Source: Bacteroidales bacterium (GTDB taxonomy: Bacteria; Bacteroidota; Bacteroidia; Bacteroidales; P3). Taken from it: a stretch of 64,000 bases of DNA. The stretch is taken from NCBI GenBank assembly GCA_031263015.1, contig JAISGN010000016.1, positions 1-64,000 of the forward strand, written 5' to 3'. Numbering within the stretch: the stretch's first letter is position 1; every line of letters begins with the position of its first letter. The notes beneath the pieces were generated by a model that ran no database searches, had not been told where the DNA came from, and was given only the letters and a program-made list of their open reading frames with translations. Below are positions 14,598-27,924 of this stretch, in pieces. The position numbers were made by a program, and so were the translations under genes.

Positions 14598-14649
14598 CGA
14601 AAAGAATTCCTATTAAATGTACATTATTCAGTATGAATGTAAATTTTCA

Positions 14650-14657
14650 TACCTTTG
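14650..14657 (+). promoter_or_regulatory. Duplicated rocD promoter (-7 box TACCTTTG), pointing into the dnd island
   Basis: The box and at least 34 bases after it are identical to the intact rocD promoter at 19962. If active it would transcribe rightward, antisense to the 3' end of the dndE-herA gene. Confidence 0.55.
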
Positions 14658-14691
14658 CATCAACAAATTAAAACACAAAACATATCTAAAT

Positions 14692-14777
14692 ATGACAAAA
14701 TCAGAACAATTAATGGAAATGGAGCACCATTATAGTGCCCATAATTATAATTAGTTGCCGGTAATGCTATCAAAAGG
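14692..14777 (+). pseudogene. Dead 5' fragment of rocD
   Basis: The copied ATG at 14692 is followed by 20 codons that match RocD except G15S and H20N, then a TAG at 14752 where the intact gene has CCG. Homology stops at 14777. The fragment cannot make an aminotransferase. The nonsense change shows the left copy has drifted while the right copy has stayed functional. Confidence 0.9.
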
Positions 14778-14803: not shown

Positions 14804-16384
14804 TTATTTTTCTTTATAAAACTGTTTGATTTCGAATAATTCTCCTTTTGGAAATTCCTTAATATTGGAGATTGCTTGTCCTTTTTGTATTTTTTCTAAA
14901 CTGCGATATGCTTTTGTTCCGTCTTTATCACTAAAACCCAAAAATCGGTTGATTGCTTTCGTGTTGTTTTTATCCTTTACATCTAATAAAAACGACATTT
15001 CACACATACTCGAAAAATCAAAATTTGATTGATTAAATTCTTCTATACCTTGCGATAACAAAATAACAGAAACTCCTTTTGAGCGAATTTCACGCAATAT
15101 TTTTTCCAAAATATCTTGATATTTTTTTTCTTTGAAAATTACGTGAGCTTCGTCAATCAACAACACATAACGCATTGCACGACATCCGTTTTCTGTCGGC
15201 GAGCTTTCCATATTCATAAACACATTGTAAATGTAATTTATAATTAAAAATAAAGAAGTAAAACGCACTGAATTTGACAAGTCTCCTGATAAAGACAGAT
15301 AAATATTCTGATTTAGGAAATTTCCTGTTTTTTTGTCTTCTTTAAAAATATTGAACCGACTCAACTCGTCAATTATTTCGGTTAATGTATCACGCTTGTC
15401 TCCAACAATTTCTAAAAGCTGTTCGTTAATCTCCGATAAGCTTGGATATTCTCCCGGACGTTTTGTTATAAACGCTTCATTAGTTGCCTCGCGTAATTTA
15501 CCTCTCTGTTTTATTCCAATATTTGAATATTTGCAAATTATATCTACAAATTTGTCAATTCCCATTTGCTTATTGACATCGTTAATACTGTCTATAAATG
15601 AAAGTGGATTTATTGGAAAAGGCGTTCTGGGAGCATCAATAAACTGTGCTTTTGTTTTATCAAAAAAAGGCTTAAATTCAATTAGATCATCATCTTTAAG
15701 ACCCTTAAAATCCAAATATATAAAATTGACATGTTGATTGGATTTTTCTGAAATTTCACGTAAAAGTTGTAATGCAAATTGAGTTTTACCTGTACCCGAA
15801 CTTCCTGCAATTGCAATATGATTATTATTATAATTTATTGTATCGTTGAAATTTAGCGTAATTTCATCACTTACTAATCCTATTTTATTTCCAACAGTCA
15901 ATTTTATTGGCTCGCTAAAATAAGTTTTTTCAATATTTTGATTGTTATTTTTAACAGCATCTAAACTTACTTTTACGGTGTCTAACATTGCAATTCCTTT
16001 GTCTAAATGCTCTGTCAAAAAATCTAAAAATGTATAATTATTATTGTTGTTAAATAAGTTATCCATCAACAATAAACCATGGTCAATATGTAGTTTTATG
16101 TAGCGAGGAATGTTCTCATCTGACTTGTAAATTCCGTAATACTGACAAATCAAAGCAATATAAAAATCACGATATTTTTCGTCAAAAAGAATATGGTCTT
16201 TGTATTCTTTTCCTTTTGAATCATAAATATTGAACTCTGAAGTGGAAAATTTTTTCCCACTTTGTAACGAATACCCTAATGCAATTCTCGCAATAACATT
16301 TTCCTTTGTACCAAGGGGGAGTTTGGCTGTGAGTTGCCTAACAATATCTTGATTTGCTTCTGAAGTTCTTATATTAATTTGCAT
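14804..16384 (-). CDS. DndE domain fused to a HerA/FtsK-type ATPase
   Basis: From the ATG at 16384 the product has 526 residues. The first 110 or so (INIRTSEANQDIV... through DENIPRYIKLHIDHGL) match the small DNA-binding protein DndE of phosphorothioation systems, normally a stand-alone protein of about 110 residues. After a 70-residue linker comes a P-loop ATPase with Walker A GSSGTGKT (194-201), LDFKG, Walker B YVLLIDEA (406-413) and a sensor strand VSVILLSQG, the pattern of HerA-like DNA translocases. An upstream TTG at 16405 is less likely as a start. The ATG overlaps the dndD stop by 11 bases. I infer that DNA binding and DNA pumping are joined in one protein; whether it serves modification or restriction is open. 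Confidence 0.82.
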   Translation of the reverse strand: MQINIRTSEANQDIVRQLTAKLPLGTKENVIARIALGYSLQSGKKFSTSEFNIYDSKGKEYKDHILFDEKYRDFYIALICQYYGIYKSDENIPRYIKLHIDHGLLLMDNLFNNNNNYTFLDFLTEHLDKGIAMLDTVKVSLDAVKNNNQNIEKTYFSEPIKLTVGNKIGLVSDEITLNFNDTINYNNNHIAIAGSSGTGKTQFALQLLREISEKSNQHVNFIYLDFKGLKDDDLIEFKPFFDKTKAQFIDAPRTPFPINPLSFIDSINDVNKQMGIDKFVDIICKYSNIGIKQRGKLREATNEAFITKRPGEYPSLSEINEQLLEIVGDKRDTLTEIIDELSRFNIFKEDKKTGNFLNQNIYLSLSGDLSNSVRFTSLFLIINYIYNVFMNMESSPTENGCRAMRYVLLIDEAHVIFKEKKYQDILEKILREIRSKGVSVILLSQGIEEFNQSNFDFSSMCEMSFLLDVKDKNNTKAINRFLGFSDKDGTKAYRSLEKIQKGQAISNIKEFPKGELFEIKQFYKEK

Positions 16385-18491
16385 ATAATTCGTTGTATTT
16401 ATCAATTAAACTTTCTGGTGGTATTTCCACAAATTTAGAGGCATCAGTATTAAAATTATCAATAATGTAGGCTTTACTGACATTTGGCTTTAATAATTCA
16501 AATTCACTTTCTGTCAGCTCTTTATGTATAAGTGGAAATAATATTACTTGTTTTGAAACATTAGGATAAAACTCCTTTATAACATTCTCTGCATGGTCTT
16601 TGTCGAATTTCTGCATAGGCGAATCAATAAACACGGGGAAATCAATATCAGATTCATCAACCAAGGATTTTAACAAGGCAGAAGCATACATCTGACGCTC
16701 TCCCATAGAAAGCGATCCTTTGTCAATTTTTTCATTTCTTACATCAAAAAGATTTATATCCACGTCGTCTCCTGCTTGGTTAATATCCACGACTACTCTA
16801 TGTATGAAATTCTTTTTGTGCATTAAGATATTTAATTCATTCAATATATTTTCTTCCAACTTCTTTTTCGTTGTAATTTTGAACTCTTTGATAAATTCTT
16901 TTAACTGAGATATAAGTTCCTGTGTTTTCTTGTCTTTTTCCGAATAACGCCTTGAATCATCTATCTTTTTTCTCAATTCCTCCTGTCTTTGTTTCAGCGT
17001 TTTTATCTCATTTTTCAACCCACCGATTTTTTCTCCTAAATCATAAATGTCTTTGTCTATGTTAAATATACGGTCATCTAAACGTTTCTTTTCTGCTCGC
17101 ATGTTTGCAATATACTCATCTTCCGCATCTTTCTCTGCCATGCGTATTTTTCTGCGAATGGAATCAATATCACTTTTTGCACGCAAATAATTATCATTAA
17201 GACGAGTAAAGGCATCTTTAAAAGTATGTTTCAAATGATTAACCAAAGTGTTTAATTCATTTGTTTGCGTGTCAGAAAAATCGTGTAATACATTGAAAAT
17301 AGAAGGCAAATCCGGTACATCAGAAAAAAAGTGCTTTTTTATCAGTTTTTTTATTTGTTCTTCGTAAAAATCACGGACTTCAACTTCAATAACGCCTTTA
17401 AACTGTTTTTTTTCTTTTTCAATATCATCAAGAATAAGTATCGTTTTTTCTTTTACATCTTCTTGTTTATACTTATTGTCTTTATAATTTTTCTCATTTT
17501 CTAATTGAGTAGAAACATCCATTAAAGTTTCGCCAGCTAAGCCAAACGGAATTAAATCAAATAAATCTTTTAACTCATTTTGCAGACTTAAAATTTTTTC
17601 ATTAAGTTCTCTTTCTTTTGCTTTCAATTCATTCAGTTGTTCCAGAGTCATCATATTGCCCTCTTGGACTAATTTCATTTGAATATCATTTGATTCACTT
17701 TGTTTTTCAATTTTTTCTTGATTCAATTCTTGAATTTGATCGTCAATGTCATCAATATTGATCTGTTTATTGTTTATATCAGCTTCTATCTGATTGAATT
17801 CCGCTCTTTCTTGCGGTTTTGCTGATTTTTTGCGATATTCGTCTTGAATATTCTCTAATTGGTCTTTTAAATCTTCATATTTTTTTATTCCTAAAACTTC
17901 GGTGTATGCTTTACTCAAAATTCTTCTTTGTTCCGGCGAATTTATTTCAGCAAGAGAAACTATTTTTTCAGCATCAAAAAAGAAAAATTTTGCAATTTCA
18001 ATCGGTAAAATAAAATCACGTATAAATATTTCCTCTCCGTCTTGTTTTCCATCTGTTGTTAAATCTTGAATTAATTGATTTTGATAGCCGTCTATTAAAA
18101 CTTCAACTTTATCATTTGTGCTTGTTATGGTATCAAATGTTCGAGTTATTTTTACTTCATTACAAGATATTTCTGGAATTTTCACATCTTTGAATGTTAC
18201 GGAAACAGAAAACTTTGTTTCCCCTTCATTTTTTGCTAATCTATTGAGTGTATTCCCAATATATTTACCATAACCACCTTTGTCGGCAATTTCTTTTTGA
18301 TATAATTCATCAACTTTATCCATTTGCCGACCATACAAGCACCAAACTAATGACATTAGAAATGTTGTTTTGCCAAACCCATTTTTGCCACTCACAACAA
18401 TAATATTTTTATTGTCATCAGGTAACAGATTAATAGCATTGTTTCCTTTATAAATTCGGAAATTGTTTAATGTAATTTCTTTAATCAGCAT
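16374..18491 (-). CDS. dndD: DndD, SMC/Rad50-like ATPase of DNA phosphorothioation
   Basis: The 705-residue protein has an N-terminal Walker A GKNGFGKT (residues 35-42), long coiled-coil arms at about 205-560 rich in E, K and Q, and a C-terminal half-ATPase. That half has the ABC signature LSMGERQMYAS (594-604) and Walker B FPVFIDSP followed by the D-loop-like QKFDKDH. This is the DndD layout; DndD is an ATPase required for sulfur insertion in the DNA backbone. A plain Rad50/SbcC relative is the alternative, but the dndC gene directly upstream and the DndE domain downstream decide it. Start and stop each overlap the neighbouring gene by 11 bases, indicating coupled translation. Confidence 0.88.
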   Translation of the reverse strand: MLIKEITLNNFRIYKGNNAINLLPDDNKNIIVVSGKNGFGKTTFLMSLVWCLYGRQMDKVDELYQKEIADKGGYGKYIGNTLNRLAKNEGETKFSVSVTFKDVKIPEISCNEVKITRTFDTITSTNDKVEVLIDGYQNQLIQDLTTDGKQDGEEIFIRDFILPIEIAKFFFFDAEKIVSLAEINSPEQRRILSKAYTEVLGIKKYEDLKDQLENIQDEYRKKSAKPQERAEFNQIEADINNKQINIDDIDDQIQELNQEKIEKQSESNDIQMKLVQEGNMMTLEQLNELKAKERELNEKILSLQNELKDLFDLIPFGLAGETLMDVSTQLENEKNYKDNKYKQEDVKEKTILILDDIEKEKKQFKGVIEVEVRDFYEEQIKKLIKKHFFSDVPDLPSIFNVLHDFSDTQTNELNTLVNHLKHTFKDAFTRLNDNYLRAKSDIDSIRRKIRMAEKDAEDEYIANMRAEKKRLDDRIFNIDKDIYDLGEKIGGLKNEIKTLKQRQEELRKKIDDSRRYSEKDKKTQELISQLKEFIKEFKITTKKKLEENILNELNILMHKKNFIHRVVVDINQAGDDVDINLFDVRNEKIDKGSLSMGERQMYASALLKSLVDESDIDFPVFIDSPMQKFDKDHAENVIKEFYPNVSKQVILFPLIHKELTESEFELLKPNVSKAYIIDNFNTDASKFVEIPPESLIDKYNELYAN

Positions 18492-19833
18492 TTTCCTGTT
18501 CTTTTTTTATGTATTCTTCAATACGTGTTTCAATATCATCTTTTAACCCTCTTTTTTTGTTCAGAAGAGATTTATTTTTTTGAAGAGTTAAAAGCTCTTG
18601 AATTAGATTAAAATTTTGCGGTTTTTTGTCGCAAGATTTTTTTAATAATTCTAATTCTTTCTCCTTTTTCTTGTTATGTTCGTCCATATTCAAATTGGAT
18701 TTATATGCGTTAGTATAAATTTCGGATACTTTATAGTCAAAAACAAAATCTCTATACCATATTGTTTGAATAGCAATAAGTTCTTGATTGGTTATTAACT
18801 CTATATTTGACTTGTTTTCTTGTATTTTTTTCTGGGTTTTTAACAATCGCTCTAAAATTGAAGCCCTGTAAGAAGGATAATACGAACCCATATCATTCAC
18901 GGCTTTTGTTCCGTTTCTACGAAGTGGCATTCGATTTTTTATATCATTTCTTTCTGCAACAATTTCGTCTCTGAACTCTAAAAGAGGTTTCAACCACGAA
19001 AAACCGTTATTAATCAACGCTCCCATTGATTTATCTTCTTTTACAACCGTACACATCCAACAACCAAAACGACTTTGTCCACAGGATTTATGTTTTGTAT
19101 CCGTTACAACCACGGGACATTCATAATCATCAGCACTCGCGTTTGCATATATCTGAAATAATTCTTCATTGCTTGCACCCCAAGGCGAAGACATTGTGTT
19201 AATAATGTACCAAACTTGTTCTAATTGTAAATGTCTTATTGGTGCATACATATAAGTATTTGGCTGTAATGGGTGTTTTGTTAATCGCTTTCCTTTTATA
19301 GCGTGTTTGTTCATTGACCTTGCGCGATTTGCACTTTCACTCATTCTTGTACCAATTAGGATTATTGCTTCTCCAAATTCATTAACCTGTTCTGTAATAA
19401 ATCTCGAAGTTGGCTTAATTTTAAGCCGTTCCGTACACCAACGAAATGCGTTGTTTGGAGCGGGATACCCACGTCCAATCATATTGACCCATAAAGAATC
19501 TTCCAGTCTTGGTAAAGTTTTTACAACTCTAATTGGTAAATCTTGCTCGCGAGCAGCAATTTCAATTTTATCTAAAACACGATAAACATATTCGGTAATT
19601 ACAGGATTTTCCACCATAGTATCATTACATACAACATAAATATCACGACCAACAAAACCGTGAAGATTTTTATTTGCTTTGTTGATTTGCGATAACGCTT
19701 CCCATACCAACTGCAACATTACTGTAGAATCCTTTCCCCCGCTAAAACCAATTATCCACGGACGTTTAGAGTTGTCCGCAAACATATATTGGTCTATAAT
19801 TTCATCTACAATATTTTGTACAAATTCTGTCAT
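18481..19833 (-). CDS. dndC: DndC, PAPS-reductase-like sulfurtransferase of DNA phosphorothioation
   Basis: From the ATG at 19833 the product has 450 residues. The ATP-pyrophosphatase loop SGGKDS is at 31-36. Four cysteines expected to hold an iron-sulfur cluster are at about C133 (FRWCTE) and C251, C258 and C261 (SCGQSRFGCWMC), followed by the DndC-typical TVVKEDKSM. DndC activates the DNA phosphate and passes sulfur delivered by a cysteine desulfurase. No dndA desulfurase is encoded here, so a chromosomal IscS-type enzyme would have to serve. A TTG six bases upstream falls at the expected transcription start and was rejected. It is the first gene of the operon. Confidence 0.9.
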   Translation of the reverse strand: MTEFVQNIVDEIIDQYMFADNSKRPWIIGFSGGKDSTVMLQLVWEALSQINKANKNLHGFVGRDIYVVCNDTMVENPVITEYVYRVLDKIEIAAREQDLPIRVVKTLPRLEDSLWVNMIGRGYPAPNNAFRWCTERLKIKPTSRFITEQVNEFGEAIILIGTRMSESANRARSMNKHAIKGKRLTKHPLQPNTYMYAPIRHLQLEQVWYIINTMSSPWGASNEELFQIYANASADDYECPVVVTDTKHKSCGQSRFGCWMCTVVKEDKSMGALINNGFSWLKPLLEFRDEIVAERNDIKNRMPLRRNGTKAVNDMGSYYPSYRASILERLLKTQKKIQENKSNIELITNQELIAIQTIWYRDFVFDYKVSEIYTNAYKSNLNMDEHNKKKEKELELLKKSCDKKPQNFNLIQELLTLQKNKSLLNKKRGLKDDIETRIEEYIKKEQENAD

Positions 19834-19847
19834 TTTCAATAAAAATG

Positions 19848-19855: not shown

Positions 19856-19954
19856 CGATTTTTAAATTAGAATTCTCATTATTTCTGGACACAAAGATAG
19901 TGATTTAAATCAATTCACCATACATTAGTAACGTTTTTGCTTTTCATAACATAG

Positions 19955-20089
19955 ATTTTCATACCTTTGCATCAACAAATTAAAACACAAAACATATCTA
20001 AATATGACAAAATCAGAACAATTAATGGAAATGGAGCATCATTATGGTGCCCATAATTATCATCCGTTGCCGGTAGTGCTATCAAAAGG
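19955..20089 (+). repeat. Right 135-bp direct repeat: intact rocD promoter and 5' end
   Basis: This is the functional copy of the sequence duplicated at 14643-14777. Homology starts five bases before the promoter-proximal ATACC and ends within codon 29 of rocD. Confidence 0.95.
19962..19969 (+). promoter_or_regulatory. -7 box TACCTTTG for rocD
   Basis: TACCTTTG ends 34 bases before the rocD ATG at 20004. Confidence 0.6.
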
Positions 20090-27270: not shown

Positions 27271-27330
27271 ATTATTTTTGTCGTTTATATGATTTATGAT
27301 TAAAATCCGGAGAATAGAACTTTTTTTCTT

Positions 27331-27575
27331 GGGAAGAAAAGTTCCCGTCTATGGAAGAAAAGTTCCCGTCTGTGGAAGAAAAGTTCCCGTCTGTGGAAGA
27401 AAAGTTCTCGTCCGTGGAAGAAAAGTTCTCGTCTGTGGAAGAAAAGTTCTCGTCCGTGGAAGAAAAGTTCTCAACGTGTGCAGGAAAGTTTCCAACGTAT
27501 GCAGAAAAGTTTCCGTCCATAGAAAAAAAGTTCTCGTCTGTGGAAGAAAGGTTCTCGTCTGTGGAAAAAATGTTA
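27331..27575. repeat. Tandem repeat, 21-bp period, about 11.5 copies
   Basis: Units such as TGGAAGAAAAGTTCTCGTCCG repeat every 21 bases from 27331. Variation is mostly C/T changes at two positions, with a more diverged stretch at 457-520 of the same kilobase. Both strands stay open through it (VEEKFSS heptads on one, DENFSST on the other), but I see no sign of a real gene. The rest of the 900-bp gap 27271-28171 holds the inverted repeat at 27925 and otherwise nothing recognisable. Confidence 0.9.
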
Positions 27576-27924
27576 TTTTCGGAAGTATAAAACAGATATT
27601 CGCAAGCCGCAACTCTGTATTCACAGAGTTTTAAACCATTGAAAGTAAGGCTTTTACCCCCCCACTGACAAAATGTCAGCAGCGATGATATGGTATCTTG
27701 CTATTATGAAATCCGTTTCTTTATACATAAGGTTATTATACTGTGCTTTTTCTCTTATTAAGAGACTGCAAAGATAAGCAAATTATCTAAAACACAAATA
27801 AAATTGCTAAAAAATAAATAAAAAATATGCTTTTAATCGGTAGTCTAATACAATTCAGCATTTGGAGTTATAAAACGTTTAACGGTCATTGCTGACTTTT
27901 CCATCGTCATTGCGGCTTGCTACT

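What the first reader, a model, noticed from the sequence alone, without database searches (positions are those of the whole stretch)
14804..16384. DndE fused to a HerA-like translocase ATPase
DndE is usually a separate protein of about 110 residues that binds DNA. Here its pattern covers the first 110 or so residues of a 526-residue protein whose rest is a P-loop ATPase with GSSGTGKT and YVLLIDEA. HerA-like ATPases are known from restriction modules of phosphorothioation systems (DptH), so the fusion may join modification and restriction or DNA scanning in one chain. I cannot say if the fusion is already described.
Basis: partly seen in the sequence, partly recalled or inferred. Interest (0 to 1): 0.7.

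Follow-up and report, generated by a model that had tools for sequence, protein, structure and literature searches.

The report
Known DndE–translocase fusion (DndEi), horizontally acquired
The protein really is a DNA-sulphur-modification factor (DndE) joined to a DNA-pumping motor, but this fusion was already described in 2016 as DndEi; what is new here is modest: an acquisition scar around this copy, swappable neighbour genes in its relatives, and a second, separately made fusion of DndE to a different motor in Proteobacteria.

Summary
Residues 5-112 of the 526-aa protein are a DndE domain (Pfam 5e-20) and residues ~157-506 a HerA/FtsK-type ATPase. Both halves match solved structures of the named proteins: DndE 7x4e and the DndH C-terminal domain 7es4, the latter also the best fold match. 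It is not a frameshift: about 40 other loci, mostly Bacteroidota, carry the same uninterrupted fusion. The interpretation needs correcting. The fusion is already known as DndEi (Zheng et al. 2016) and as 'clade-3 HerA/FtsK fused to DndE' (Rakesh et al. 2024), and the title of the 2016 paper calls the motor essential for modification. The operon is dndC-dndD-dndEi with no dndA or dndB; I found no DndF, DndB or relative-type cassette in the genome, so a link to restriction is unsupported. Beyond the literature I read: (i) this operon sits between 138-bp direct repeats of the 5' end of rocD, an acquisition scar; (ii) relatives carry one of several two-gene cassettes right after dndEi (ParB-like + an orphan family; GHKL ATPase + Methyltransf_35; GIY-YIG-like + DndB); (iii) Proteobacterial plasmids carry a separate DndE-FtsK fusion next to dndD, so DndE acquired a motor at least twice.

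The parts
14804..16384 (-). dndEi: DndE-HerA/FtsK ATPase fusion, 526 aa
16049..16372 (-). DndE domain (residues 5-112)
   Evidence: Pfam PF08870 5e-20; PDB 7x4e DndE 1.6e-8
14867..15916 (-). HerA/FtsK-type ATPase domain (about residues 157-506), related to the DndH C-terminal domain
   Evidence: PADLOC DndH 1.5e-24; 7es4 by sequence and fold
15782..15805 (-). Walker A GSSGTGKT (residues 194-201)
   Evidence: G194, G197, G199, K200, T201 invariant in 27 relatives
15146..15163 (-). Walker B LLIDEA (residues 408-413)
   Evidence: I410-H414 invariant
15050..15052 (-). sensor-1 Gln (Q445), with invariant R431/R434 as candidate arginine finger
   Evidence: criterion from PMC10853773
16374..18491 (-). 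dndD: ABC/SMC-like ATPase, 705 aa, no Cys hook in the coiled coil
   Evidence: TIGR03185 1.6e-84, 284.6 bits over cut-off 245.85; Cys only at 51 and 110
18481..19839 (-). dndC: PT sulfurtransferase (ATG at 19833, upstream TTG at 19839)
   Evidence: TIGR03183 2.4e-127, 425.5 bits over cut-off 290.4; SGGKDS at 33, Cys253/260/263
14640..14777 (+). left copy of the flanking direct repeat: decayed 5' end of rocD
   Evidence: 138 bp, 95% identical to 19952-20089
19952..20089 (+). right copy of the direct repeat: promoter and first 86 bp of intact rocD

Best explanation
This is a three-gene DNA phosphorothioation (PT) modification operon, dndC-dndD-dndEi, acquired horizontally at the 5' end of rocD. 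DndEi is one chain with two jobs. The N-terminal DndE part binds target DNA. The C-terminal HerA/FtsK-type motor, working with the DndD ATPase, moves along or opens the DNA so that DndC can place sulphur. Sulphur probably comes from the housekeeping SufS, because no DndA or IscS was found. Shown here: domain content, homology, conserved catalytic motifs, operon structure, and absence of DndB, DndF and the relatives' cassette-A protein by the searches run. Inferred: target binding by the DndE half, need of the motor for modification (by homology to R. anatipestifer DndEi), oligomer state, sulphur source. Not shown: that the genome carries PT.
For: Domains and folds. Invariant motor motifs. dndC and dndD over their equivalog cut-offs. 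The same three genes in the same order in most of the 44 related loci. DndB absent, with controls ringing. DndF absent, with positive controls G140 and NZ_LR721753. Only cysteine desulfurase found is SufS (542.8 bits over 475.1), the second full-length class-V hit being SerC. Acquisition: direct repeats and low GC. Prior work on DndEi (Zheng 2016), known here through its title and citation.
Against: PT has not been measured in this organism. The 2016 paper could not be read here, only its title and citation. Some fused relatives (L076, L078) sit beside DndD with no dndC, so the fusion may also serve non-PT systems. A subgroup closely related by DndD has stand-alone DndE, so the motor is not always needed. 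The DndE score is below the strict TIGR03184 equivalog cut-off (39.3 against 71.85).
Confidence: 0.85

Rival explanations
1. The HerA half is a restriction or defence motor: DndEi finds target sites with its DndE half and pumps or blocks unmodified invader DNA, with a nuclease supplied elsewhere.
For: Nearest motor relative is the DndH restriction ATPase. In relatives, cassettes with ParB-like, GIY-YIG-like or Mrr-HARE genes follow dndEi.
Against: No such cassette follows in the window and searches found no DndF, DndB or cassette-A protein in this genome. The published title puts the helicase in modification.
Confidence: 0.1
2. Assembly error or frameshift joining two separate genes.
For: Canonical DndE is a separate protein of about 110 aa.
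Against: The same full-length fusion occurs in 41 other loci at down to about 54% identity and, more diverged, at about 30% in L067-L069.
Confidence: 0.01
3. The fused protein serves a DndD-DndE scanning dyad that no longer makes PT and does another job.
For: L076 and L078 keep DndD and the fusion without dndC.
Against: The window keeps an intact dndC with P-loop and conserved cysteines.
Confidence: 0.04

Closest known systems
DndEi of Riemerella anatipestifer (Zheng et al. 2016, J Biol Chem 291:1492; cited in PMC7464106, which reports dndEi in Prevotella and Bacteroides)
   Same: DndE with an additional helicase/ATPase domain, in PT modification genes of Bacteroidota
   Different: No direct sequence comparison with the R. 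anatipestifer protein was possible; activity and target motif (GAAC/GTTC there) untested here. That the 2016 protein is from R. anatipestifer rests on my own knowledge
'Clade-3' HerA/FtsK domain fused to DndE beside a DndD-related ATPase (Rakesh, Aravind and Krishnan 2024, PMC10853773)
   Same: Same architecture, same gene neighbour, motor related to DndH
   Different: In my small sample the fused motors form one group (90/87) apart from five DndH motors
DndH/DptH C-terminal ATPase (PDB 7es4)
   Same: Closest solved fold and sequence for residues 159-480
   Different: DndH is a ~1,700-aa multidomain restriction protein; none of its other domains are present
IscS-DndBCDE-DndI (PMC11662687)
   Same: PT system with an extra ATPase
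   Different: DndI is an SspE-like PT sensor encoded separately; not this architecture

Membership tests
DndEi (DndE-helicase fusion) | N-terminal DndE domain | tested here: met
   PF08870 5e-20 over gathering cut-off; 7x4e DndE 1.6e-8
DndEi (DndE-helicase fusion) | additional ATPase/helicase domain in the same chain | tested here: met
DndEi (DndE-helicase fusion) | encoded with dndC and dndD | tested here: met
DndEi (DndE-helicase fusion) | helicase needed for PT modification; ATPase stimulated by target motif | not testable with these tools
   wet-lab assay
HerA/FtsK ATPase | Walker A, Walker B, sensor-1 Q at end of strand 4, Arg just upstream | tested here: met
   G194-T201, IDEA 410-413, Q445, R431/R434 invariant in 27 relatives
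HerA/FtsK ATPase | hexameric ring and DNA translocation | not testable with these tools
   monomer model only
DndE equivalog TIGR03184 | score over curated cut-off 71.85 | tested here: not met
   39.3 bits; it is a DndE-domain protein but not a canonical stand-alone DndE
DndE, two ribbon-helix-helix units | strand-helix-helix twice | tested here: inconclusive
   four helices in the expected order, but the strands are low-confidence (residues 1-5 and 55-60, pLDDT < 50)
DndH/DptH restriction protein | multidomain ~1,700 aa with REase domain | tested here: not met
   526 aa, only the motor part is shared
PbeC / CxC-clade ATPase (partner gene 16374-18491) | Zn-hook cysteines in the coiled coil | tested here: not met
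   only Cys51 and Cys110 in 705 aa, although PADLOC labels it PbeC; TIGR03185 DndD over cut-off

The most novel reading that the evidence does not exclude
DndE has repeatedly acquired a DNA-pumping motor: a HerA-type motor in the Bacteroidota lineage of the window, and, separately, an FtsK motor with the FtsK alpha domain in Proteobacterial plasmids (Rhizobium phaseoli, Aureimonas, Burkholderia glumae, Mesorhizobium amorphae). The HerA-fused systems carry an exchangeable two-gene slot directly behind dndEi, filled by ParB-like plus an orphan family, GHKL ATPase plus Methyltransf_35, or GIY-YIG-like plus DndB, likely alternative restriction or control modules.
Probability: 0.5. Interest if true: 0.45.

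Novelty: already known. Interest (0 to 1): 0.22.

Why it matters
How DndE takes part in placing sulphur on the DNA backbone is unsettled. A fusion of the DNA-binding part to a motor says that DNA movement or opening belongs to modification, not only to restriction, and two separate fusions to different motors make that point stronger. The exchangeable cassettes give named candidates for the missing restriction partner of these systems. The window copy itself is an ordinary, stripped-down member.

Tried and rejected
Frameshift or misassembly: rejected. PbeC identity of the partner: rejected for lack of hook cysteines. Homology to DndI: rejected from its description. Cassette protein A2 as a nuclease: considered because of invariant E150, GxD214 and QCACGK, but its confident model (pLDDT 83) has no PDB fold match (best E 0.31), no PDB sequence match and no Pfam, PADLOC or NCBIfam match; left unassigned. 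A clean empty site in same-genus genomes: not found, because nhaD and rocD are not neighbours there. Viral contigs: no relative. Plasmid and phage records: only motor-half matches to DndEi, no HerA fusion. One ancestral HerA fusion against two: undecided. All HerA-fused DndD partners as one clade is rejected (AU p 2.6e-5), but the 16 close ones as one clade is not (p 0.27).

Full report
OBSERVATION. The window holds one open frame at 14804-16384 on the minus strand (526 aa from ATG 16384; an upstream in-frame TTG would add 7 aa). It overlaps dndD by 11 bases. Pfam DndE covers residues 5-112 (E 5e-20, 72.3 bits, cut-off 25). The rest is a P-loop ATPase whose best library match is the C-terminal end of DndH (1.5e-24). 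A profile from 27 relatives searched against PDB sequences finds DptH 7es4 for residues 159-480 (2.3e-19) and DndE 7x4e for residues 23-113 (1.6e-8). The AlphaFold model (pLDDT 79.3) is two domains joined by a poorly predicted linker around residues 128-140; its best PDB fold match is DndH-C 7es4 (E 1.9e-19, TM 0.82 by target length), followed by VirB4 and HerA. Walker A, the IDEA box, Q445 and R431/R434 are invariant among the 27.

NOT AN ARTEFACT. A scan of GTDB genomes gave 44 loci; 41 carry a full-length fusion frame of 500 aa or more, most within dndC-dndD-dndEi. In a draw of 395 Bacteroidota genomes, ten have DndE (the window's own genome among them): five in frames of 511-542 aa and five in frames of 135-169 aa, so in this phylum the fusion is about as common as the stand-alone form in that sample.

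OPERON AND GENOME. dndC (18481-19839) and dndD (16374-18491) pass their equivalog cut-offs. DndD has only Cys51 and Cys110, so it is not a CxC/PbeC-type ATPase despite PADLOC's label; the CxC criterion is from PMC10853773. In the 1.87-Mb, 98.6% complete genome there is no DndB (controls ring), no DndF (two positive controls ring) and no A2 cassette protein (no positive control in that call). Two full-length class-V aminotransferases were found: SufS and SerC. Thus no DndA or IscS was seen, and SufS is the likely sulphur source (inference). Whether a PT-reading nuclease of another kind exists was not tested.

ACQUISITION SCAR. The operon lies between two direct repeats of 138 bp, 95% identical: 14640-14777 and 19952-20089. 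The right copy is the promoter region and the first 86 bp of rocD (ATG 20004); the left copy is a decayed duplicate with an in-frame stop (sequence). Operon GC is 30.8% against 37.7% for the rest of the window. Three same-genus genomes lack dndEi, and in the pieces of them examined both window copies match one and the same stretch, the 5' end of rocD. The simplest reading is insertion of about 5.2 kb at the rocD 5' end with duplication of that end. No integrase was seen beside it, so the mechanism is unknown. Among the other loci examined, only L023 (79 bp, 86%) and L031 (49 bp, 96%) show anything similar.

ALREADY KNOWN. [quoted passage not shown] The paper itself is not held. [quoted passage not shown] The fusion is therefore neither new nor first linked to DndH here.

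MECHANISM. Best reading: DndEi is the DNA-engaging subunit of a modification complex. The DndE half, which PMC10853773 describes as two ribbon-helix-helix units in all DndEs, recognises the site; the HerA half moves or opens DNA; DndD is the second ATPase; DndC places sulphur. Only the parts list, homology and conserved motifs are shown here. A direct restriction role is a weaker rival (0.1).

BEYOND THE FINDING, 1: SWAPPABLE CASSETTES. In relatives the genes directly behind dndEi fall into recurrent pairs, often overlapping or a few bases apart: A, ParB-like protein (PADLOC PD-Lambda-5_A 1.1e-25) plus an orphan family of about 330 aa, 12 loci; B, GHKL ATPase (PF13589 7.7e-14) plus Methyltransf_35 (PF20553 3.8e-89), 5 loci; C, GIY-YIG-like protein (weak, E 0.11) plus DndB (8.1e-32), 4 loci; also membrane protein plus DndB in L006 and L008, and a gene of the Mrr/HARE-HTH family further downstream in L022, L033 and L011. 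PMC10853773 covers GIY-YIG and REase-HARE neighbours; I did not find pairs A or B in its main text (supplements not readable). The nearest relative L002 (91%) lacks a cassette, L003 (91%) has pair A. The window has none: a sodium/proton-antiporter-like gene follows. The counts come from one search and share ancestry. The orphan A2 has a confident model without a PDB match.

BEYOND THE FINDING, 2: A SECOND MOTOR FUSION. On Rhizobium phaseoli, Aureimonas, Burkholderia glumae and Mesorhizobium amorphae plasmids the gene directly after dndD, annotated as FtsK, is about 500 aa with an N-terminal DndE domain (Pfam 4.2e-6 and 1.4e-8, over cut-off, in R. phaseoli and M. amorphae; 3.1e-4 and 0.073, below cut-off, in the other two, which align with R. 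phaseoli at 65% and 49%) followed by FtsK alpha and FtsK/SpoIIIE domains. The R. phaseoli motor matches SspH and FtsK, not the DndH HerA group. The motor differs in kind from the window's, so it is a separate capture. A full-text search for DndE with FtsK returned only PMC10853773 and one paper on archaeal proviruses; the main text of the former, as far as read, names only the clade-3 fusion. The library is incomplete, so novelty is provisional.

HISTORY OF THE HerA FUSION. On the DndD tree the stand-alone-DndE group L070-L072/L075 lies inside a 100/100 clade with 16 fused systems, while fused L076/L078 lie outside it. Holding all fused partners as one clade is rejected (p 2.6e-5), holding the 16 close ones is not (p 0.27). 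Either the motor was lost in the stand-alone group or HerA was captured twice; the fused HerA domains themselves form one group (90/87), which favours loss, weakly. Long branches are present.

VERDICT. Observation confirmed; interpretation partly right; the finding is already known. Interest 0.22 for the finding, with the second fusion and the cassettes as the leads worth following.

Noticed in passing
14640-14777 and 19952-20089: 138-bp direct repeats (95%) flank the whole dnd operon; they are the 5' end and promoter of rocD, the left copy decayed. Marks a 5.2-kb insertion; no integrase seen.
   Followed up: partly
L106:5567-7093, L114:5001-6524, L115:6001-7542, L116:5004-6494: DndE-FtsKalpha-FtsK fusions next to dndD on Proteobacterial plasmids: an independent DndE-motor fusion.
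   Followed up: partly
L003:5347-7396 and eleven other loci (alignments A2, A3): ParB-like gene plus an orphan ~330-aa family (invariant GxD ... QCACGK) right after dndEi; no Pfam, PADLOC or PDB match for the orphan.
   Followed up: partly
L004, L007, L040, L041, L045, directly after dndEi: GHKL ATPase plus Methyltransf_35 (PF20553) gene pair in the same slot.
   Followed up: partly
L076, L078: DndD plus DndE-HerA fusion without dndC, preceded by a large protein with sigma70 region-4-like HTH: possibly non-PT systems.
   Followed up: no
L079, L080: DndD-like ATPase paired with a HerA protein of 528-580 aa with no recognisable DndE domain, beside SF2 helicase genes (and a DNA methylase in L079).
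   Followed up: no
L037 (9,746-bp contig): Identical 141-bp contig ends suggest a circular ~9.6-kb plasmid carrying dndCDEi (or an assembly k-mer overlap).
   Followed up: no
whole genome G000 (L046, L047): Only one cysteine desulfurase, SufS, was found; the second full-length class-V aminotransferase is SerC.
   Followed up: partly
window 27296-27634: 112-aa ORF made of repeated GRKVxVCGRKV units; probably a non-genic tandem repeat.
   Followed up: no
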